From: Nitrosomonadales bacterium
Lineage (GTDB): Bacteria; Pseudomonadota; Gammaproteobacteria; Burkholderiales; Gallionellaceae
DNA length: 64,000 nucleotides
Assembly: GCA_016199835.1 (NCBI GenBank)
Contig: JACQFX010000051.1
Span: forward strand, 1-64,000
Reading direction: 5' to 3'
Shown one piece after another: positions 21,594-60,938 of this stretch. The notes below the pieces were generated by a model that had not been told where the DNA came from, made no database searches, and saw nothing but the letters and a program-made list of their open reading frames with translations. Positions within the stretch are counted from its first letter, which is position 1, and every line of letters begins with the position of its first letter. The translations under genes and the position numbers were made by a program.

Positions 21594-21650
21594 TTAGTTT
21601 CTGTATAACTTCACTCTTTGTAAATTTTGAATGCGGCAAATCCGTAACCG

Positions 21651-21693
21651 CAGGGTGGACTACGCCCACCATGTCGGGCGTAGCCCGACCTAC
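21651..21693. repeat. GTAGGTCGGGC-type palindromic intergenic repeat, copy 1
   Basis: On the minus strand this begins GTAGGTCGGGCTACGCCCGA, followed by a second hairpin half GGTGGGCG...CCACC. The first 21 bases recur exactly at 53522-53542. It lies between yciO and the PHP phosphatase gene. It is a dispersed palindromic repeat, probably folding in RNA. Confidence 0.75.
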
Positions 21694-23289: not shown

Positions 23290-23367
23290 CTCGAATCCGG
23301 CTACCAAACCTAACGGGCATGGCAATAATGCCTTCCCTGAAAAAAAAACTCCATGCCCGCCCCCCTC

Positions 23368-23404
23368 TCTCCATCTCTCCCCCTGAGGGGGAGAGGGGCA
23401 ATGG
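23368..23404. repeat. CTCTCCCC-CTGA palindromic repeat
   Basis: CTCTCCCC (23375-23382) pairs with GGGGAGAG (23388-23395) around a loop beginning CTGA, and is followed by GGGCAA. The repeat inside nuoG at 63308-63332 has the same layout (CCTTCCCC, CTGA loop, GGGGAAGG, then GGGCAA). Here it lies between ratA and smpB. Confidence 0.75.
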
Positions 23405-23430
23405 CTCGCTGCGCGAGTTTCACGTTAATA

Positions 23431-23440
23431 CTGGTAGAAT
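23431..23440 (+). promoter_or_regulatory. Extended -10 element before smpB
   Basis: TGGTAGAAT, an extended -10 box, lies about 10 bases before the smpB start. No clear -35 is seen. If used, the smpB leader would be very short. Confidence 0.3.
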
Positions 23441-23449
23441 ATACGAGAT

Positions 23450-23899
23450 ATGAGCATCATCCAAAACAAAAAAGCATTCCACGACTTCTTCATCGAAGAC
23501 CGCTATGAGGCCGGCATCGTGCTGCAAGGCTGGGAAGTCAAGGCCATCCGCGCCGGACGCGCCAACCTCAAGGAAGCCTATGTCCTGATAAAGGACGGCG
23601 AGCTCTACCTGTTCGGCTCCCACATCAGCCCGCTCACCGCCGCCTCCACGCACATCCTGCCCGAGCCAGTACGCACGAGAAAACTATTGCTGCACGCGGC
23701 GGAAATCAACAAGCTTATCGGCAAAGTGCAACGCGCCGGATACACCTTGATGCCGCTGGATATGCATTACAAAGGCGGACGCGTCAAACTGGACATCGGC
23801 CTAGCCAAAGGCAAAAAGGAACACGACAAACGGGCCACGGAAAAGGAACGAGAGAGCAAGCGTGAAGCCGCCCAGGCCATGAAAAAGGAAAGGCGCTAA
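23450..23899 (+). CDS. smpB: SsrA-binding protein (trans-translation)
   Basis: A 149-aa SmpB, which carries tmRNA to stalled ribosomes. The core runs from [21 protein letters not shown], an OB-fold, to the lysine/arginine-rich C-terminal tail that enters the mRNA channel. The last codons (K-K-E-R-R-stop) are present twice: a second copy of the final 74 bases lies at 23974-24047. The ssrA gene itself is not in the window. Confidence 0.97.
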
Positions 23900-24047
23900 T
23901 GTGCAGCCCGTTTGCGGCGAAGGCTAACATGAGCATGGCGAATGTTAAGCGCGCAACGCGCGCGGCCATAGCCACAAACGGGCCACGGAAAAGGAACGAG
24001 AGAGCAAGCGTGAAGCCGCCCAGGCCATGAAGAAAGAACGCCGCTAA
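23900..24047. repeat. Palindromic element plus duplicate of the smpB 3' end
   Basis: A 74-base spacer (23900-23973) is followed by a second copy of the smpB end (23974-24047, matching 23826-23899). The first 56 bases are identical; the last codons differ only synonymously (AAA AAG GAA AGG CGC against AAG AAA GAA CGC CGC). The spacer contains GCTAACAT/ATGTTAAGC and outer arms GCCCGTTTG (23906-23914) / CAAACGGGC (23975-23983). Read on the minus strand, its core matches the element between nuoC and nuoD. The second copy has no start codon and is not a gene. Confidence 0.85.
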
Positions 24048-24056
24048 CGACTCTCC

Positions 24057-24590
24057 ATGATTGAAGTCATCATCCTCGCCATCGCCCTCAGCATGGATGC
24101 CTTCGCTGTCTCCATCGGCCTCGGCGCAAAAGAAAACTCGCCGGGGCTGGCATTGAAAGCCGGCCTGTTCTTCGGCATCTTCCAGGCCCTGATGCCCTTC
24201 ATCGGTTATGCGGGCGGCAAAGGCGTACTGGGCTGGATCGAGGCCTACTCCCACTGGATCGCGTTCGGCCTGCTGCTGCTCATCGGCGTCAAGATGATCT
24301 ACGAGAGCTTGCAGGAAGGCGTGGAAGAAGACATCGCCGCCGTTACCAACAAGATGATGCTGATCCTCGCCATCGCCACCAGCGTGGACGCGATGGCCGC
24401 CGGATTCAGCCTCACGCTGCTCGACGCCAATCCCTATGTCGCGTGCCTGGTCATCGGCATCACGACTTTCGCATTCAGTTGGAGCGGCGTCATCATAGGC
24501 CGACGCAGCGGCACCTGGCTGGAGAGCAAGGCCGAGATATTCGGCGGCGTGGTGCTGGTGCTGATGGGATTCAAGTTCCTGTTGTTCTAA
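24057..24590 (+). CDS. mntP: Manganese efflux pump
   Basis: A 177-aa, six-helix membrane protein of the MntP (former DUF204) family, exporting Mn2+. The paired motifs [14 protein letters not shown] and [13 protein letters not shown], each with an acidic residue needed for transport, are intact. In E. coli mntP is controlled by MntR and a yybP-ykoY riboswitch. Here the gap to the repeat element is only 9 bases, so no riboswitch fits directly upstream. Confidence 0.95.
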
Positions 24591-36892: not shown

Positions 36893-37759
36893 CTAATCCT
36901 GTTGTAATACGGCCTGACCGTTGGCATACGACTTATCCAGGCCTAATTGCGCCTCGACATCGCCCTGCGTCGCGGCCTGCCCGAACCAGTAAGCGACTCG
37001 CGTATCGTCACGCTCGACGCCCTCGCCTTTTTCATAAAGCACGGCCATATTAAATTGCGCATCGGCATTGCCCTGCGTGGCCGCCTTCTCAAACCAGTAG
37101 GCAGCCTGCTTGTAGTCCTGCGACACGCCCAGGCCGTTGGCGTAAAGATCGCCCAAGTTGAATTGCGCCAATATATTGCCTTGCGCTGCCGCCTTCTCAA
37201 ACCAATAAGCGGCTTTCTTGTAGTCCTGCCACACGCCCTCCTGGGCATTGGCATAAATATCAGCCAAACCAAATTGTGCATACACATCGCCCTGCGCCGC
37301 AGCCTTTTCAAACCAATAAGCAGCTTGCTTGTAGTCCTGCGGCACACCCTCGCCATTGCTGTACAGATTACCCGTCACGAGTTGCGCGTCTGCATTCCCC
37401 TGCGCCGCCACCTTCTCGAACCAGTAAGCAGCCTGTACATCATCCTGCTCTACACCATCACCATTCCGGTACATGGCTCCCAGCACAAACTGCGCTTTAG
37501 CGTACCCCTGCGCCGCAGCCTTCTCATACCAATATGCAGCTTGCGCCTTATCCTGTTCCACCCCTTTTCCTTCCATGTACAGCCCGCCCAGATAGTGCTG
37601 AGCAGTTGCATTCCCGGATCGGGCGGCTCTGGATAACGGAGCAACTGCCAGCGCATAATTCCTGCCCTCAATAAATCTGACGGCATCCTCATAATCGTCT
37701 GCCATAGCAGGCGGCACAAAAAATACCCAAAGAAAACCCAACACTGCCAAAAACCGCAT
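36893..37759 (-). CDS. Sel1-repeat protein, exported
   Basis: A 288-aa protein with a signal peptide (MRFLAVLGFLWVFFVPPAMA) followed by about seven 36-residue Sel1-like repeats of the form AAYWFEKAAAQGNADAQF. Such TPR-like solenoids mediate protein contacts, often in the periplasm. The repeats are similar at the DNA level too. ATG at 37759 directly follows AGGGGGGAG; longer frames are rejected. It converges with flhC. Confidence 0.88.
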   Translation of the reverse strand: MRFLAVLGFLWVFFVPPAMADDYEDAVRFIEGRNYALAVAPLSRAARSGNATAQHYLGGLYMEGKGVEQDKAQAAYWYEKAAAQGYAKAQFVLGAMYRNGDGVEQDDVQAAYWFEKVAAQGNADAQLVTGNLYSNGEGVPQDYKQAAYWFEKAAAQGDVYAQFGLADIYANAQEGVWQDYKKAAYWFEKAAAQGNILAQFNLGDLYANGLGVSQDYKQAAYWFEKAATQGNADAQFNMAVLYEKGEGVERDDTRVAYWFGQAATQGDVEAQLGLDKSYANGQAVLQQD

Positions 37760-43328: not shown

Positions 43329-43426
43329 AACCACGGACGACACGGAATTACACGGAAAAATCGGATACACAGACAGAATCCATTAAATATACGTTTCTTC
43401 CGTGTAATTCCGTGTCATCCGTGGTT
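43329..43426. repeat. Long inverted repeat, CCACGGA family, copy 1
   Basis: A 29-base arm beginning AACCACGGACGACACGG (43329-43357) is inverted at 43398-43426 with one mismatch around a 40-base loop. It fills the lpxA-lpxB gap. In RNA it would form a strong stem inside the lpx transcript. Related elements lie at 49926-49976 and 51189-51245. Confidence 0.8.
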
Positions 43427-53521: not shown

Positions 53522-53565
53522 GTAGGTCGGGCTACGCCCGACGCAACGGGCAAAGCCCGCCCTAC
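53522..53565. repeat. GTAGGTCGGGC palindromic repeat, copy 2
   Basis: GTAGGTCGGGCT (53522-53533) is inverted at 53554-53565 with one mismatch, with inner dyad TCGGGC/GCCCGA. Its first 21 bases equal the repeat near 21673-21693 read on the other strand. It lies between pyrH and frr. Confidence 0.78.
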
Positions 53566-53572
53566 GGCAAAC

Positions 53573-57928: not shown

Positions 57929-58401
57929 AAGGCATTCTGGAGAAAGGCTTCGTCGTCACCTCCGCCGATACCATCATCAACTATGCGCGCACCGGCTCGC
58001 TGTGGCCTATGACGTTTGGCCTGGCCTGCTGCGCGGTGGAGATGATGCATGCGGCGCTGCCGCGTTACGACCTGGATCGTTTCGGCGCCGGCGCTTTCCG
58101 TCCCAGCCCGCGCCAGTCCGACGTGATGATCGTGGCCGGCACGCTGTGCAACAAGATGGCGCCCGCCCTGCGCAAGGTGTATGACCAGATGGCCGAGCCA
58201 CGCTGGGTGATTTCCATGGGTTCCTGCGCCAACGGCGGCGGCTACTACCATTATTCCTATTCTGTGGTGCGCGGCTGCGATCGCATCGTGCCGGTGGACG
58301 TCTACGTGCCGGGCTGCCCGCCGACTGCGGAAGCGCTGCTGTATGGCGTGATCCAGTTGCAGAACAAGATCAAACGTACCAACACGATTGCGCGCGGGTG
58401 A
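57919..58401 (+). CDS. nuoB: NADH-quinone oxidoreductase subunit B
   Basis: A 160-aa subunit carrying cluster N2, next to the quinone site. The paired cysteines in [11 protein letters not shown], then SCANGG and [10 protein letters not shown], give the four ligands. AAAGGAG precedes the start. Confidence 0.98.
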
Positions 58402-58403
58402 AC

Positions 58404-59066
58404 ATGACTGCTGAATTGTGCAAATTACAGGACAGGAAACGCTTCGAGCTGCAAGACAAGCTGGCCAGGCGCTTTGGTGACCGCATAGCAAGCACGGGCG
58501 TTATCCTGTGCGAATTGACCGTGACGGTGCGCGCCGCCGACCTGCTGGAAGTGCTGACACATTTGCGCGACGACGCCGACTTCCGTTTCGAGCAACTGGT
58601 CGATCTGTGCGGCATGGATTATTCCGCATATGGCAGCGATGTCTCCGAAGGCGGGACTTACCCGGCAAACGAAGCCGCCGACAAAAAATTCCCCGCACGC
58701 TACGCTGCCGTGTATCACCTGTTATCGGTGACACACAACGTGCGGCTGCGTGTGCGCGCGTTCGCCGATGACGATGGCTTCCCCATGCTCGACTCGGTGA
58801 CGGGCATCTGGCCCTCCGCCAACTGGTACGAGCGCGAGGCTTTCGATCTTTACGGCATCGTATTCACCGAGCATCCCGACCTGCGCCGCCTGCTCACCGA
58901 CTACGGTTTCGTCGGCAACCCGTTCCGCAAGGATTTCCCGCTGTCCGGCACCGTCGAGATGCGCTACGACTCCGAGCAGCAGCGCGTCATCTACCAGCCG
59001 GTGACCGTCGAGCCGCGCGAAGTTACACCGCGCATCGTGCGCGAAGAACAGTACGGCAGGAATTAG
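58404..59066 (+). CDS. nuoC: NADH-quinone oxidoreductase subunit C
   Basis: A 220-aa 30-kDa-type subunit with ERE(A)FDLYGI and [20 protein letters not shown], the family signature. It starts 2 bases after nuoB. The native-type nuoD start lies one base after its stop but leads into a short frame. Confidence 0.97.
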
Positions 59067-59067
59067 C

Positions 59068-59187
59068 ATGGCTGAGATAAAAAACTACACCATCAACTTT
59101 AGTTACGGCCGCCCTGCGGGCTTAACTTGCTTGTGCAAGTTAGCCTTCACTGAAATTTATTGTGAACGCACGTTGTGGAAAGCGTGA
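59068..59187 (+). CDS. Short frame with duplicated nuoD N terminus
   Basis: A 39-aa frame one base after nuoC, with AGGA placed correctly 7-9 bases before its ATG inside nuoC. Its first 11 residues, [11 protein letters not shown], are identical to those of NuoD, but almost every codon differs synonymously. After residue 11 it runs into a palindromic element and stops 15 bases before the real nuoD. It looks like the original nuoD start cut off by an insertion; it may still be translated and couple ribosomes to nuoD. Confidence 0.6.
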   Translation: MAEIKNYTINFSYGRPAGLTCLCKLAFTEIYCERTLWKA

Positions 59188-59202
59188 GACGAGCAAAGAG
59201 CT
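59101..59202. repeat. Palindromic element between the two nuoD starts
   Basis: A 102-base insert. TAACTTGC (59123-59130) pairs with GCAAGTTA (59135-59142), flanked by GGCT and GCCTTCAC. The core GCTTAAC...GTTAGCCTTC matches the minus strand of the element after smpB, including the GGCCGC segment before it. The second half carries the weak ribosome site used by nuoD. Confidence 0.75.
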
Positions 59203-60456
59203 ATGGCAGAAATTAAGAATTACACAATAAATTTTGGGCCGCAGCACCCCGCTGCGCACGGCGTGCTGCGTCTCGTGCTGGAGCTGGACGGCGAAGTGGT
59301 CGAGCGCGCCGATCCGCACATCGGCCTGCTGCATCGCGCCACCGAGAAGCTGGCCGAGCACAAGACATTTTTGCAGAACGTGCCTTACATGGATCGTCTG
59401 GATTACGTGTCCATGATGGTCAACGAACATGCTTATGTGATGGCGATCGAGCGCATGCTGGGCATCGAGGTGCCGATCCGCGCGCAATATATCCGCGTCA
59501 TGTTCGACGAGATCACGCGCATCCTGAACCACCTGCTGTGGCTGGGCGCTTCCGGCATCGACCTCGGCGCGATGACCATGTTCTTCTACACTTTCCGCGA
59601 ACGCGAAGATTTGCTGGATGCCTACGAGGCGGTGTCCGGCGCGCGCATGCATGCGGCCTACTATCGCCCGGGCGGCGTGTATCGCGACCTGCCGGAATCC
59701 ATGGCGCATTACAAGGAAAGCAAGGTGCACAGCGCGGCGGATATCAAGCGCATGAACGCGAATCGCCAAGGGTCACTGCTGGATTTCCTCGAAGACTTCA
59801 CCAACCGTTTTCCCACCTATGTGGACGAATACGAGACCCTGTTGACCGACAACCGCATCTGGAAACAGCGCACCGTCGGCATCGGCGTGGTGTCGCCGGA
59901 ACGTGCGCTGGCACTGGGTTTCACCGGCCCCATGCTGCGCGGTTCGGGTGTGGTTTGGGACTTGCGCAAAAAACAGCCGTATGAAGTGTATGACCGCATG
60001 GATTTTGACATCCCGGTCGGCGTCGAGGGCGATTGCTACGACCGTTACCTGGTACGCATCGAAGAAATGCGGCAAAGCAACCGCATCATCAAGCAATGCA
60101 TAGAATGGCTGCGCAAGAATCCCGGCCCGGTGATGGTGGAAAACTTCAAGATCGCGCCGCCGAAGCGCGCGGCGATGAAGGAGAACATGGAGGAGCTGAT
60201 CCACCATTTCAAACTGTTCACCGAAGGCATGCACGTGCCCGAAGGCGAGGTGTATTCCGCCGTCGAGCATCCCAAGGGCGAGTTCGGCATCTACCTGGTT
60301 TCCGACGGCGCCAACAAGCCTTATCGCATGAAAATACGCGCACCGGGCTTCGCCCATTTGTCGGCACTGGACGAGATGACACGTGGCCACATGCTCGCCG
60401 ACGTGGTAGCGATCATCGGTACGCAGGACATCGTATTTGGAGAGGTGGATCGCTGA
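59203..60456 (+). CDS. nuoD: NADH-quinone oxidoreductase subunit D
   Basis: A 417-aa 49-kDa-type subunit that forms the quinone cavity with Nuo[14 protein letters not shown] near the N terminus and the C-terminal DIVFGEVDR are standard. The first 11 codons are AT-rich (GCA GAA ATT AAG AAT) compared with the rest and duplicate an upstream copy. Its stop overlaps the nuoE start (TGATG). Confidence 0.97.
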
Positions 60457-60938
60457 TGCTGTCGGTTCAGGTTCAAGAAAAAATCGAGCGCGAGCTGCGC
60501 AAATATCCGGCTGACCAGAGGCAGTCTGCCGTAATGTCCGCATTGCGTTTCGTGCAGGATGAGAAAGGCTGGATCGAGAGCTCCGACATGGCAGACGTGG
60601 CGAACTATCTCGGCATGGCGCAGATGGCCGTGTACGAGGTCGCCACCTTCTACCACATGTACAACCTCAAGCCCATGGGCAAACACACGCTGACCGTGTG
60701 CACCAACCTGTCCTGCCAGTTGTGCGGCGCGGAAGAAGTGCTGGGTTACATCAAGGACAAGCTGGGCATAGGCATAGGCGAAGTCACGGCGGACGGCAAG
60801 TTCGGCCTGCGCGAAGCGGAATGCATGGGCGCCTGCGTGGAAGCGCCGCTGCTGTCAGTAAACAACAAGCGCCTGTGCTTCCGCCTGACTCCGGCGAAAG
60901 TGGACCAGATACTCGCGGAACTGGGAGGACAGCCATGA
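60456..60938 (+). CDS. nuoE: NADH-quinone oxidoreductase subunit E
   Basis: A 160-aa thioredoxin-like subunit with a [2Fe-2S] cluster: cysteines in [10 protein letters not shown] and [13 protein letters not shown] overlaps the nuoD stop by one base. The open frame is longer, but upstream codons belong to nuoD. Confidence 0.97.

What the first reader, a model, noticed from the sequence alone, without database searches (positions are those of the whole stretch)
59101..59187. The elements after smpB and before nuoD share a core
Read on the minus strand, the smpB spacer contains GGCCGC...GCTTAAC...GTTAGCCTTC; the nuoD insert has GGCCGC...GCTTAAC...GTTAGCCTTC in the same order and spacing within a few bases. 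Both sit exactly between duplicated gene ends with synonymous differences. Two independent cases of the same association suggest a small mobile element family that inserts at gene termini and preserves the protein.
Basis: partly seen in the sequence, partly recalled or inferred. Interest (0 to 1): 0.74.

Follow-up and report, generated by a model that had tools for sequence, protein, structure and literature searches.

The report
Guided mobile hairpins that replace gene ends
Across one third of sampled Burkholderiales genomes, a roughly 60-base folded DNA element carries a 12-13 base address and a spare copy of one gene's start or end, and appears to insert exactly inside that gene end while leaving the protein intact; no known element combines these traits.

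Summary
The nuoD (59101-59235) and smpB (23826-23973, minus strand) inserts share a folded core and lie between duplicated, synonymously different gene ends. They belong to a family: 8 clear copies in this genome, hits in 126 of 399 genomes of the order, up to 57 copies in one genome. In element orientation the layout is: displaced gene end ...TTTT or TTGT | core of two hairpins | 13-nt guide | spacer | replacement gene end | gene body. The guide is the reverse complement of the replacement end: position 1 is a G.T wobble at the insertion point, positions 2-12 are about 90-100% paired, and pairing fades after position 13. Targets include nuoD, smpB, dnaJ, acs, nrdA, ftsW, argF, glmS, metK, murG, galU and lplT. 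An empty-site relative shows a flush 118-bp insertion at nuoD. Folding favours the head-to-tail joined form, pointing to a circular or tandem intermediate. Best reading: a non-autonomous mobile element targeted by base pairing, most likely by single-strand HUH/Y1-like transfer. That enzyme class is inference: no integron integrase, IS110 or Y1 gene tracks the element. Congener-level divergence can account for the synonymous differences.

The parts
59068..59100 (+). orphan nuoD start (displaced original end): ATGGCTGAG...AACTTT, encodes [11 protein letters not shown]
   Evidence: contiguous with nuoC as in empty-site relatives
59101..59151 (+). core of the nuoD element: AG-stem, P2, hairpins P3 and P4
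   Evidence: (E 3e-18)
59152..59164 (+). 13-nt guide GAAATTTATTGTG; reverse complement of the replacement nuoD start 59223-59235 (G.T wobble at position 1, then 12 Watson-Crick pairs)
59165..59202 (+). spacer with ribosome-binding site carried by the unit
59203..59235 (+). replacement nuoD start carried by the unit; ends at the second T| site; gene body GGGCCG follows
59068..59187 (+). orphan reading frame, open through the core and ending just before the functional nuoD ATG
   Evidence: the same pattern is readable in the other nuoD cases
23974..24047 (-). orphan smpB 3' end (74 nt), displaced original end
23916..23973 (-). core of the smpB element
   Evidence: E 6e-16
23903..23915 (-). guide GCAAACGGGCTGC, complementary to CCCGTTTGT of smpB
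23826..23899 (-). replacement smpB 3' end joined to the gene body (57 nt identical to the orphan, last codons recoded)

Best explanation
A family of non-autonomous mobile units of about 95-160 bp. Each unit is a folded core, a 12-13 nt DNA guide and a copy of one target gene's terminal segment ending in TTTT or TTGT. The head (core) and tail (gene end) of a unit join to form a circle or tandem junction in which guide and tail pair perfectly. The guide then pairs with the same site in an unoccupied gene and the head is transferred to the last T. The native end is displaced as an orphan upstream and the carried end completes the gene, so the protein survives. SHOWN: architecture, precise junctions, guide complementarity, covariation, and an empty/occupied pair. 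INFERRED: the circle or joined intermediate, mobility itself, and an enzyme in trans. Most likely the transfer is a single-strand HUH/Y1-like reaction as in IS200/IS605 (about 40% within this explanation). Carried ends most likely come from congeners, which would explain the synonymous differences.
For: Guide matches the downstream gene end at 11 or more of 13 positions in 65 of 86 elements, against 36/2534 with swapped and 3/1720 with shuffled guides. Pairing profile: G.T at position 1 in 43 of 45, positions 2-12 0.89-1.0, position 13 0.73, background (about 0.2) by about position 18. T.G at the insertion point in 68 of 69 sequences. Duplicated ends at 53 of 94 against 3%. Empty nuoD site (L097) against occupied (L144): 113/120 upstream and 287/300 in the gene body are collinear around a flush 118-bp insert, and the orphan shares the GTG start, CGT and TTG codons with the empty site. 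With ends located by duplication only, the joined head-tail structure is more stable than the in-situ one in 38, equal in 23, worse in 5, and the guide pairs better with the replacement end in 37, equally in 28, worse in 6. Tandem arrays; presence/absence differs among congeners. Same rule in a distant family, G077, and in G391. Replacement and orphan ends differ at 44% of codons synonymously and 4% non-synonymously, as between congeners. IS608 precedent: target choice by DNA-DNA pairing, circular junction, and engineered 12/17-nt targeting by pairing placed 3' of the end hairpin (PMC5934647).
Against: No enzyme found: Y1_Tnp is absent from the element-rich genomes G055, G391, G182, G289, G026 and G027. 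No circle, excision event or transfer vector seen: none on 72,556 plasmids and no convincing phage copy. The guide lies 3' of the hairpins, not 5' as the IS608 guides do. On the given strand A.C mismatches outnumber G.T (65 to 39), so the folded strand is unsettled. The window's smpB ends are identical for 57 nt next to the junction, so homologous exchange contributes there. In G015 smpB the functional tail resembles congener G030, the closest in the gene body too, and the orphan resembles G001, so which copy is native is unclear there. Some copies (inside larger repeats in G055 and G077) follow no gene-end rule.
Confidence: 0.7

Rival explanations
1. Folded single-stranded recombination site of a tyrosine recombinase (integron attC-like or phage-integrase-like): the hairpin is the recombinase substrate and gene-end restoration is that of att sites in genes and tRNAs.
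For: Gene-end restoration, arrays and copies beside tRNA and tmRNA genes are typical of integrase systems; many Gallionellaceae carry integron integrases.
Against: Full-length integron integrase is missing from the element-bearing G005, G034, G020, G027 and G033 and present in G002, G008, G011, G012, G014, G029 and G035, which show no element. A 13-nt outer stem that differs for every gene does not suit a sequence-specific recombinase.
Confidence: 0.15
2. Passive structured repeats: ends were duplicated by ordinary homologous or slippage events and the inverted copy is kept by quasi-palindrome correction; no dedicated mobility.
For: The 57-nt identical tract in the window's smpB; dnaJ and nrdA cases where the whole gene end is mirrored in a 22-24 bp hairpin; tandem arrays.
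Against: The pairing is sharply bounded at 12-13 nt and anchored at one T with a conserved G.T; the core is conserved across many families of the order; flush insertion in an otherwise collinear locus.
Confidence: 0.08
3. RNA-guided insertion: the core plus guide is transcribed and works with a protein in trans (seekRNA/bridge-RNA-like or retroelement-like).
For: Core plus guide is about 65-75 nt, near the size of seekRNAs (70-100 nt, PMC11187229); covarying structure with G.T at the junction.
Against: IS110/IS1111 DEDD recombinase genes are absent from G007, G034, G391, G055, G077 and other element-rich genomes; only one guide, for one side of the target, was found; no Rfam family; A.C exceeds G.T on the given strand.
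Confidence: 0.1
4. Cis-regulatory RNA (leader peptide or attenuator at nuoD, terminator-like hairpin at 3' ends).
For: The nuoD orphan frame stays open up to the functional start in the seven nuoD cases read; hairpins enclose stop codons at dnaJ and nrdA.
Against: The same core lies sense at 5' ends and antisense at 3' ends, so it would be read from opposite strands; presence varies between close relatives.
Confidence: 0.03

Closest known systems
IS200/IS605 family (IS608) single-strand transposons, Y1 HUH TnpA
   Same: Insertion 3' of a short T-rich site recognised by DNA-DNA base pairing with a guide in the element; hairpin ends; joined circular intermediate; precise donor sealing. IS608 was engineered to 12/17-nt targets by pairing placed 3' of the hairpin (PMC5934647), the layout seen here naturally.
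   Different: No transposase gene in cis and none that tracks the element; native IS guides are 4 nt and 5' of each hairpin, here one 13-nt guide 3' of the core; here the unit carries a replacement gene end.
REP/BIME elements with TnpA_REP (RAYT)
   Same: Small, hairpin-based, non-autonomous, tens of copies, often at gene 3' ends; RAYTs exist in this genome.
   Different: REPs have a GTAG motif next to a simple hairpin (PMC8266576), not conserved here; REPs carry no gene ends and no long guide; separate ordinary REP-like repeats exist in this window; several element-rich genomes have no Y1 gene.
Integrative elements whose attP restores the end of a gene (tyrosine integrases; e14 or phage 21 in icd, from memory)
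   Same: Insertion inside a gene end with a carried, synonymously different end that rebuilds the gene; tRNA and tmRNA neighbours.
   Different: No integrase, about 100-150 bp, guide-like complementarity adapted to each target, covarying folded core.
Integron cassettes and attC sites
   Same: Folded recombination-site-like hairpins, arrays, no promoter or enzyme in the unit.
   Different: No attI, no cassette genes; integron integrase does not track the element; the junction lies at the variable stem, not in a conserved GTTRRRY box.
IS110/IS1111 with bridge RNA or seekRNA
   Same: Programmable target choice by a short structured guide of similar size.
   Different: No DEDD recombinase in many element-rich genomes; only one target side is matched; the unit carries a gene end.

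Membership tests
IS200/IS605 (Y1 transposons) | Y1 HUH transposase in cis or present in the genome | tested here: not met
   No gene in the unit; PF01797 absent in G055, G391, G182, G289, G026, G027, G021, G003 and G004, which carry the element
IS200/IS605 (Y1 transposons) | cleavage site chosen by base pairing with an internal guide | tested here: met
   13-nt guide complementarity anchored at TTKT|; position relative to the hairpin differs
IS200/IS605 (Y1 transposons) | single-strand excision with a circular junction | not testable with these tools
   Only indirect: the joined structure is the more stable one
REP/RAYT | GTAG motif beside a short palindrome | tested here: not met
   The corresponding bases vary (CTAC, CTTC, TTCC, CTAT)
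Integron cassette / attC | integron integrase present with the element | tested here: not met
Integron cassette / attC | recombination inside a conserved GTTRRRY core site | tested here: not met
   Junction is at TTKT|GG (or |AG) in the clear cases read, not at the GTTAG box
IS110/IS1111 | DEDD recombinase (PF01548) | tested here: not met
Known structured RNA family (Rfam 15) | covariance-model match | tested here: not met
   only tRNA and tmRNA neighbours reached a gathering score
Tyrosine-integrase element with att site in a gene end | carried gene end restores the gene | tested here: met
Tyrosine-integrase element with att site in a gene end | integrase encoded by the element | tested here: not met
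   units are about 95-160 bp without a gene

The most novel reading that the evidence does not exclude
A natural programmable insertion system: a short DNA (or RNA) guide of 12-13 nt, rewritten for each target gene, directs a transposase-free hairpin unit into conserved gene ends, and the unit brings a replacement end so that insertion into essential genes is harmless; the catalyst is a so far unrecognised host or helper enzyme.
Probability: 0.4. Interest if true: 0.92.

Novelty: new variant of a known kind. Interest (0 to 1): 0.82.

Why it matters
It would be a natural case of long-guide, base-pairing-directed insertion without a double-strand-break nuclease, found in common chromosomes, with a built-in solution to the damage problem of insertion: bringing the gene's own end along. 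It resembles what was engineered into IS608 for targeted integration. It also leaves paired gene ends of different origin side by side in one genome, a record of transfer between related species, and can mislead annotation of gene starts and ends.

Tried and rejected
Integron integrase, Y1/RAYT and IS110 DEDD as resident enzymes: presence does not track copy number. Known RNA families: none. Plasmid or phage carriage: none convincing. Active recoding, hypermutation or selection for synonymous divergence: at first suggested by 152 synonymous against 14 non-synonymous codon differences within genomes and 641 against 341 between genomes, but congener smpB tails show many synonymous and few non-synonymous differences as well, so donor ends from congeners suffice. 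Random donors from distant genera are unlikely because non-synonymous differences would be more common. Strand choice by G.T versus A.C counts: undecided. Orientation against replication: 13 of 15 one way in G391 but 23 to 34 in G077, origins assumed at contig start, so not used. Literature searches for a prior description found none, but preprints and most subscription papers are not held.

Full report
CHECK OF THE OBSERVATION. The window lies in a 2.81 Mb genome in 69 contigs; its nearest relatives by nuoD are Gallionellaceae, Sideroxydans and Gallionella MAGs. Reading 58000-60500 and 23300-24200 shows both inserts. Upstream of nuoD the sequence ATGGCTGAGATAAAAAACTACACCATCAACTTT (59068-59100) is followed by the core, and the true gene starts at 59203 with ATGGCAGAAATTAAGAATTACACAATAAATTTT: the same 11 residues, 8 codons changed. 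After smpB, a 74-nt copy of the gene end (23974-24047) follows the insert; 57 nt are identical and the last codons differ synonymously. A third copy was found at the end of dnaJ.

STRUCTURE. The three cores align and fold into an outer stem, a short inner stem and two hairpins. The outer stem is gene-specific. A covariance model (R1) found 11 places in the genome at E up to 10, eight of them at E below 1e-3, and hits in 29 of 60 relatives. On 70 distinct sequences 18 of 24 pairs change on both sides; 245 double-changed cells against 74 in shuffles; the structure slid by 1-3 columns loses almost all of this. The pair at the insertion point is T.G in 68 of 69 sequences. That alignment was fitted to the model, which leans towards the structure.

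ANATOMY. In element orientation every clear case reads: displaced gene end ...TTTT or ...TTGT, then |GGYTNYGGCCG-P3-CTTAAC-P4-GTTAGCCTNCRCC, then a guide beginning with G, a spacer, the replacement gene end ending in the same T, then the gene body. The element always points into the gene body: sense at gene starts (nuoD, murG, galU, lplT), antisense at gene ends (smpB, dnaJ, acs, nrdA, ftsW, argF, glmS, metK); ten target genes were identified with NCBIfam and smpB with Pfam. 53 of 94 elements repeat at least 11 of the last 14 nt of their 5' flank downstream, against 3% for swapped flanks. Seven genomes carry the element at the start of nuoD; in them the orphan frame stays open to the functional start.

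GUIDE. The guide matches the downstream gene end at 11 or more of 13 positions in 65 of 86 distinct elements (swapped guides 36/2534, shuffled 3/1720). The profile is sharp: position 1 is G opposite T, positions 2-12 are paired in 89-100%, position 13 in 73%, 14-16 in about 40%, then background. The sites in that profile were picked by matches at positions 1-13, so only the fall beyond 13 is independent of the selection. With ends located by duplication alone, the guide pairs better with the replacement end in 37, equally in 28, worse in 6, and the fold made by joining the replacement end to the core is more stable than the fold with the displaced end in 38, equal in 23, worse in 5 (p about 1e-7). 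For the window's nuoD element the joined form has an unbroken 16-pair outer stem. The structure under selection is therefore most likely that of the head-to-tail joined form, as in a circle or tandem array. Tandem arrays of 2-5 units exist.

INSERTION IS PRECISE. An empty nuoD site (L097, Sulfuricella MAG) and an occupied one (L144) are 113/120 identical upstream and 287/300 identical in the gene body; the difference is a flush 118-bp insert that starts with the core and ends with the replacement start. The orphan shares the GTG start and the CGT and TTG codons with the empty site, so there the orphan is the native end. In G015 smpB the two tails resemble two different congeners: the functional one G030, which is also closest in the gene body, the orphan G001; there it is open which copy is native.

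SYNONYMOUS DIFFERENCES. Within genomes, orphan and replacement ends differ at 152 codons synonymously and 14 non-synonymously of 344; between genomes 641 and 341 of 1552. This looked like recoding, but congeners show the same combination in smpB tails, for example 11 and 0, 9 and 0, 15 and 0. Ends brought from congeners explain it. The shared unusual residue I9 in both nuoD copies of this genome fits a close donor but cannot be checked, as no congener of this genome is at hand.

DISTRIBUTION. A second model (R2) finds the element in 126 of 399 genomes of the order and 61 of 159 genera; complete genomes hold up to 57 copies. In G077 (another family) and G391, 29 of 44 have a guide match of at least 11/13 and 18 of 44 a duplicated end; targets recur. 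A generic class carries its own short hairpin end (GCAACAAGCCGC...GCGGCGTGTTGT) and lies beside tRNA and tmRNA genes. Copies without gene ends also occur inside larger repeats in G055 and G077. No plasmid copy and no convincing phage copy was found.

ENZYME. Integron integrase, Y1/RAYT and IS110 were tested as helpers; none tracks the element. A helper need not be resident today, so this lowers but does not exclude them. Mechanistically the nearest precedent is IS608: target chosen by DNA-DNA pairing, circular junction, and engineered extension to 12/17-nt targets by pairing placed 3' of the end hairpin (PMC5934647). The natural guide here has that position and length. Native IS608 guides are tetranucleotides 5' of the hairpins, and the REP GTAG motif is proposed to play the same part (PMC5934647, PMC8266576). 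I therefore favour single-strand, HUH-like transfer, and mark the enzyme as unknown.

STATUS. Shown: architecture, covariation, guide rule, flush insertion, wide distribution. Inferred: circle or joined intermediate, transfer between congeners, enzyme in trans. Not excluded: a tyrosine recombinase acting on folded single strands, or an RNA form.

Noticed in passing
window 21648-21693 and 53522-53567: Inverted pair with GTAGGTCGGGCTACGCCCGAC, typical REP-like repeats; the genome has two RAYT genes (G000:C30:160871, G000:C25:59760).
   Followed up: partly
window 43329-43426; L002 1570-1650: Large near-perfect palindrome AACCACGGA..ACACGGA..CACGGAAAAATC / ..TTCCGTGTAATTCCGTGTCATCCGTGGTT; a related copy lies right next to the dnaJ element, a second palindromic repeat family.
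   Followed up: no
window 36913-37566: Four overlapping copies of a 219-nt repeat at spacings 108, 219, 108 (63-70% identity), probably repeats inside a protein-coding gene.
   Followed up: no
window 59068-59187; L054, L055, L095, L105, L020, L144: The orphan nuoD start stays an open frame through the core and stops at or shortly before the functional start in these genomes, suggesting kept translational coupling in the nuo operon.
   Followed up: partly
L009/L002, L136, L140, L166 (dnaJ); L011 (nrdA): Where the gene end is short, the guide continues into a 15-24 bp nearly perfect hairpin with the stop codon in or near the loop.
   Followed up: partly
L133, L134, L142 (G055) and L292, L293, L299-L301 (G077): Identical or near-identical cores captured inside a larger dispersed repeat (in G055 with ends GGAAACGCTGAATAA), without any gene-end rule.
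   Followed up: no
L285, L289, L295, L306, L283: Units with a self-complementary end beside tRNA-Ser, tRNA-Phe and tmRNA genes, some with a partial RNA-gene copy downstream.
   Followed up: partly
G391 (complete genome): 13 of 15 elements share one orientation relative to the assumed origin, but G077 shows no such bias.
   Followed up: no
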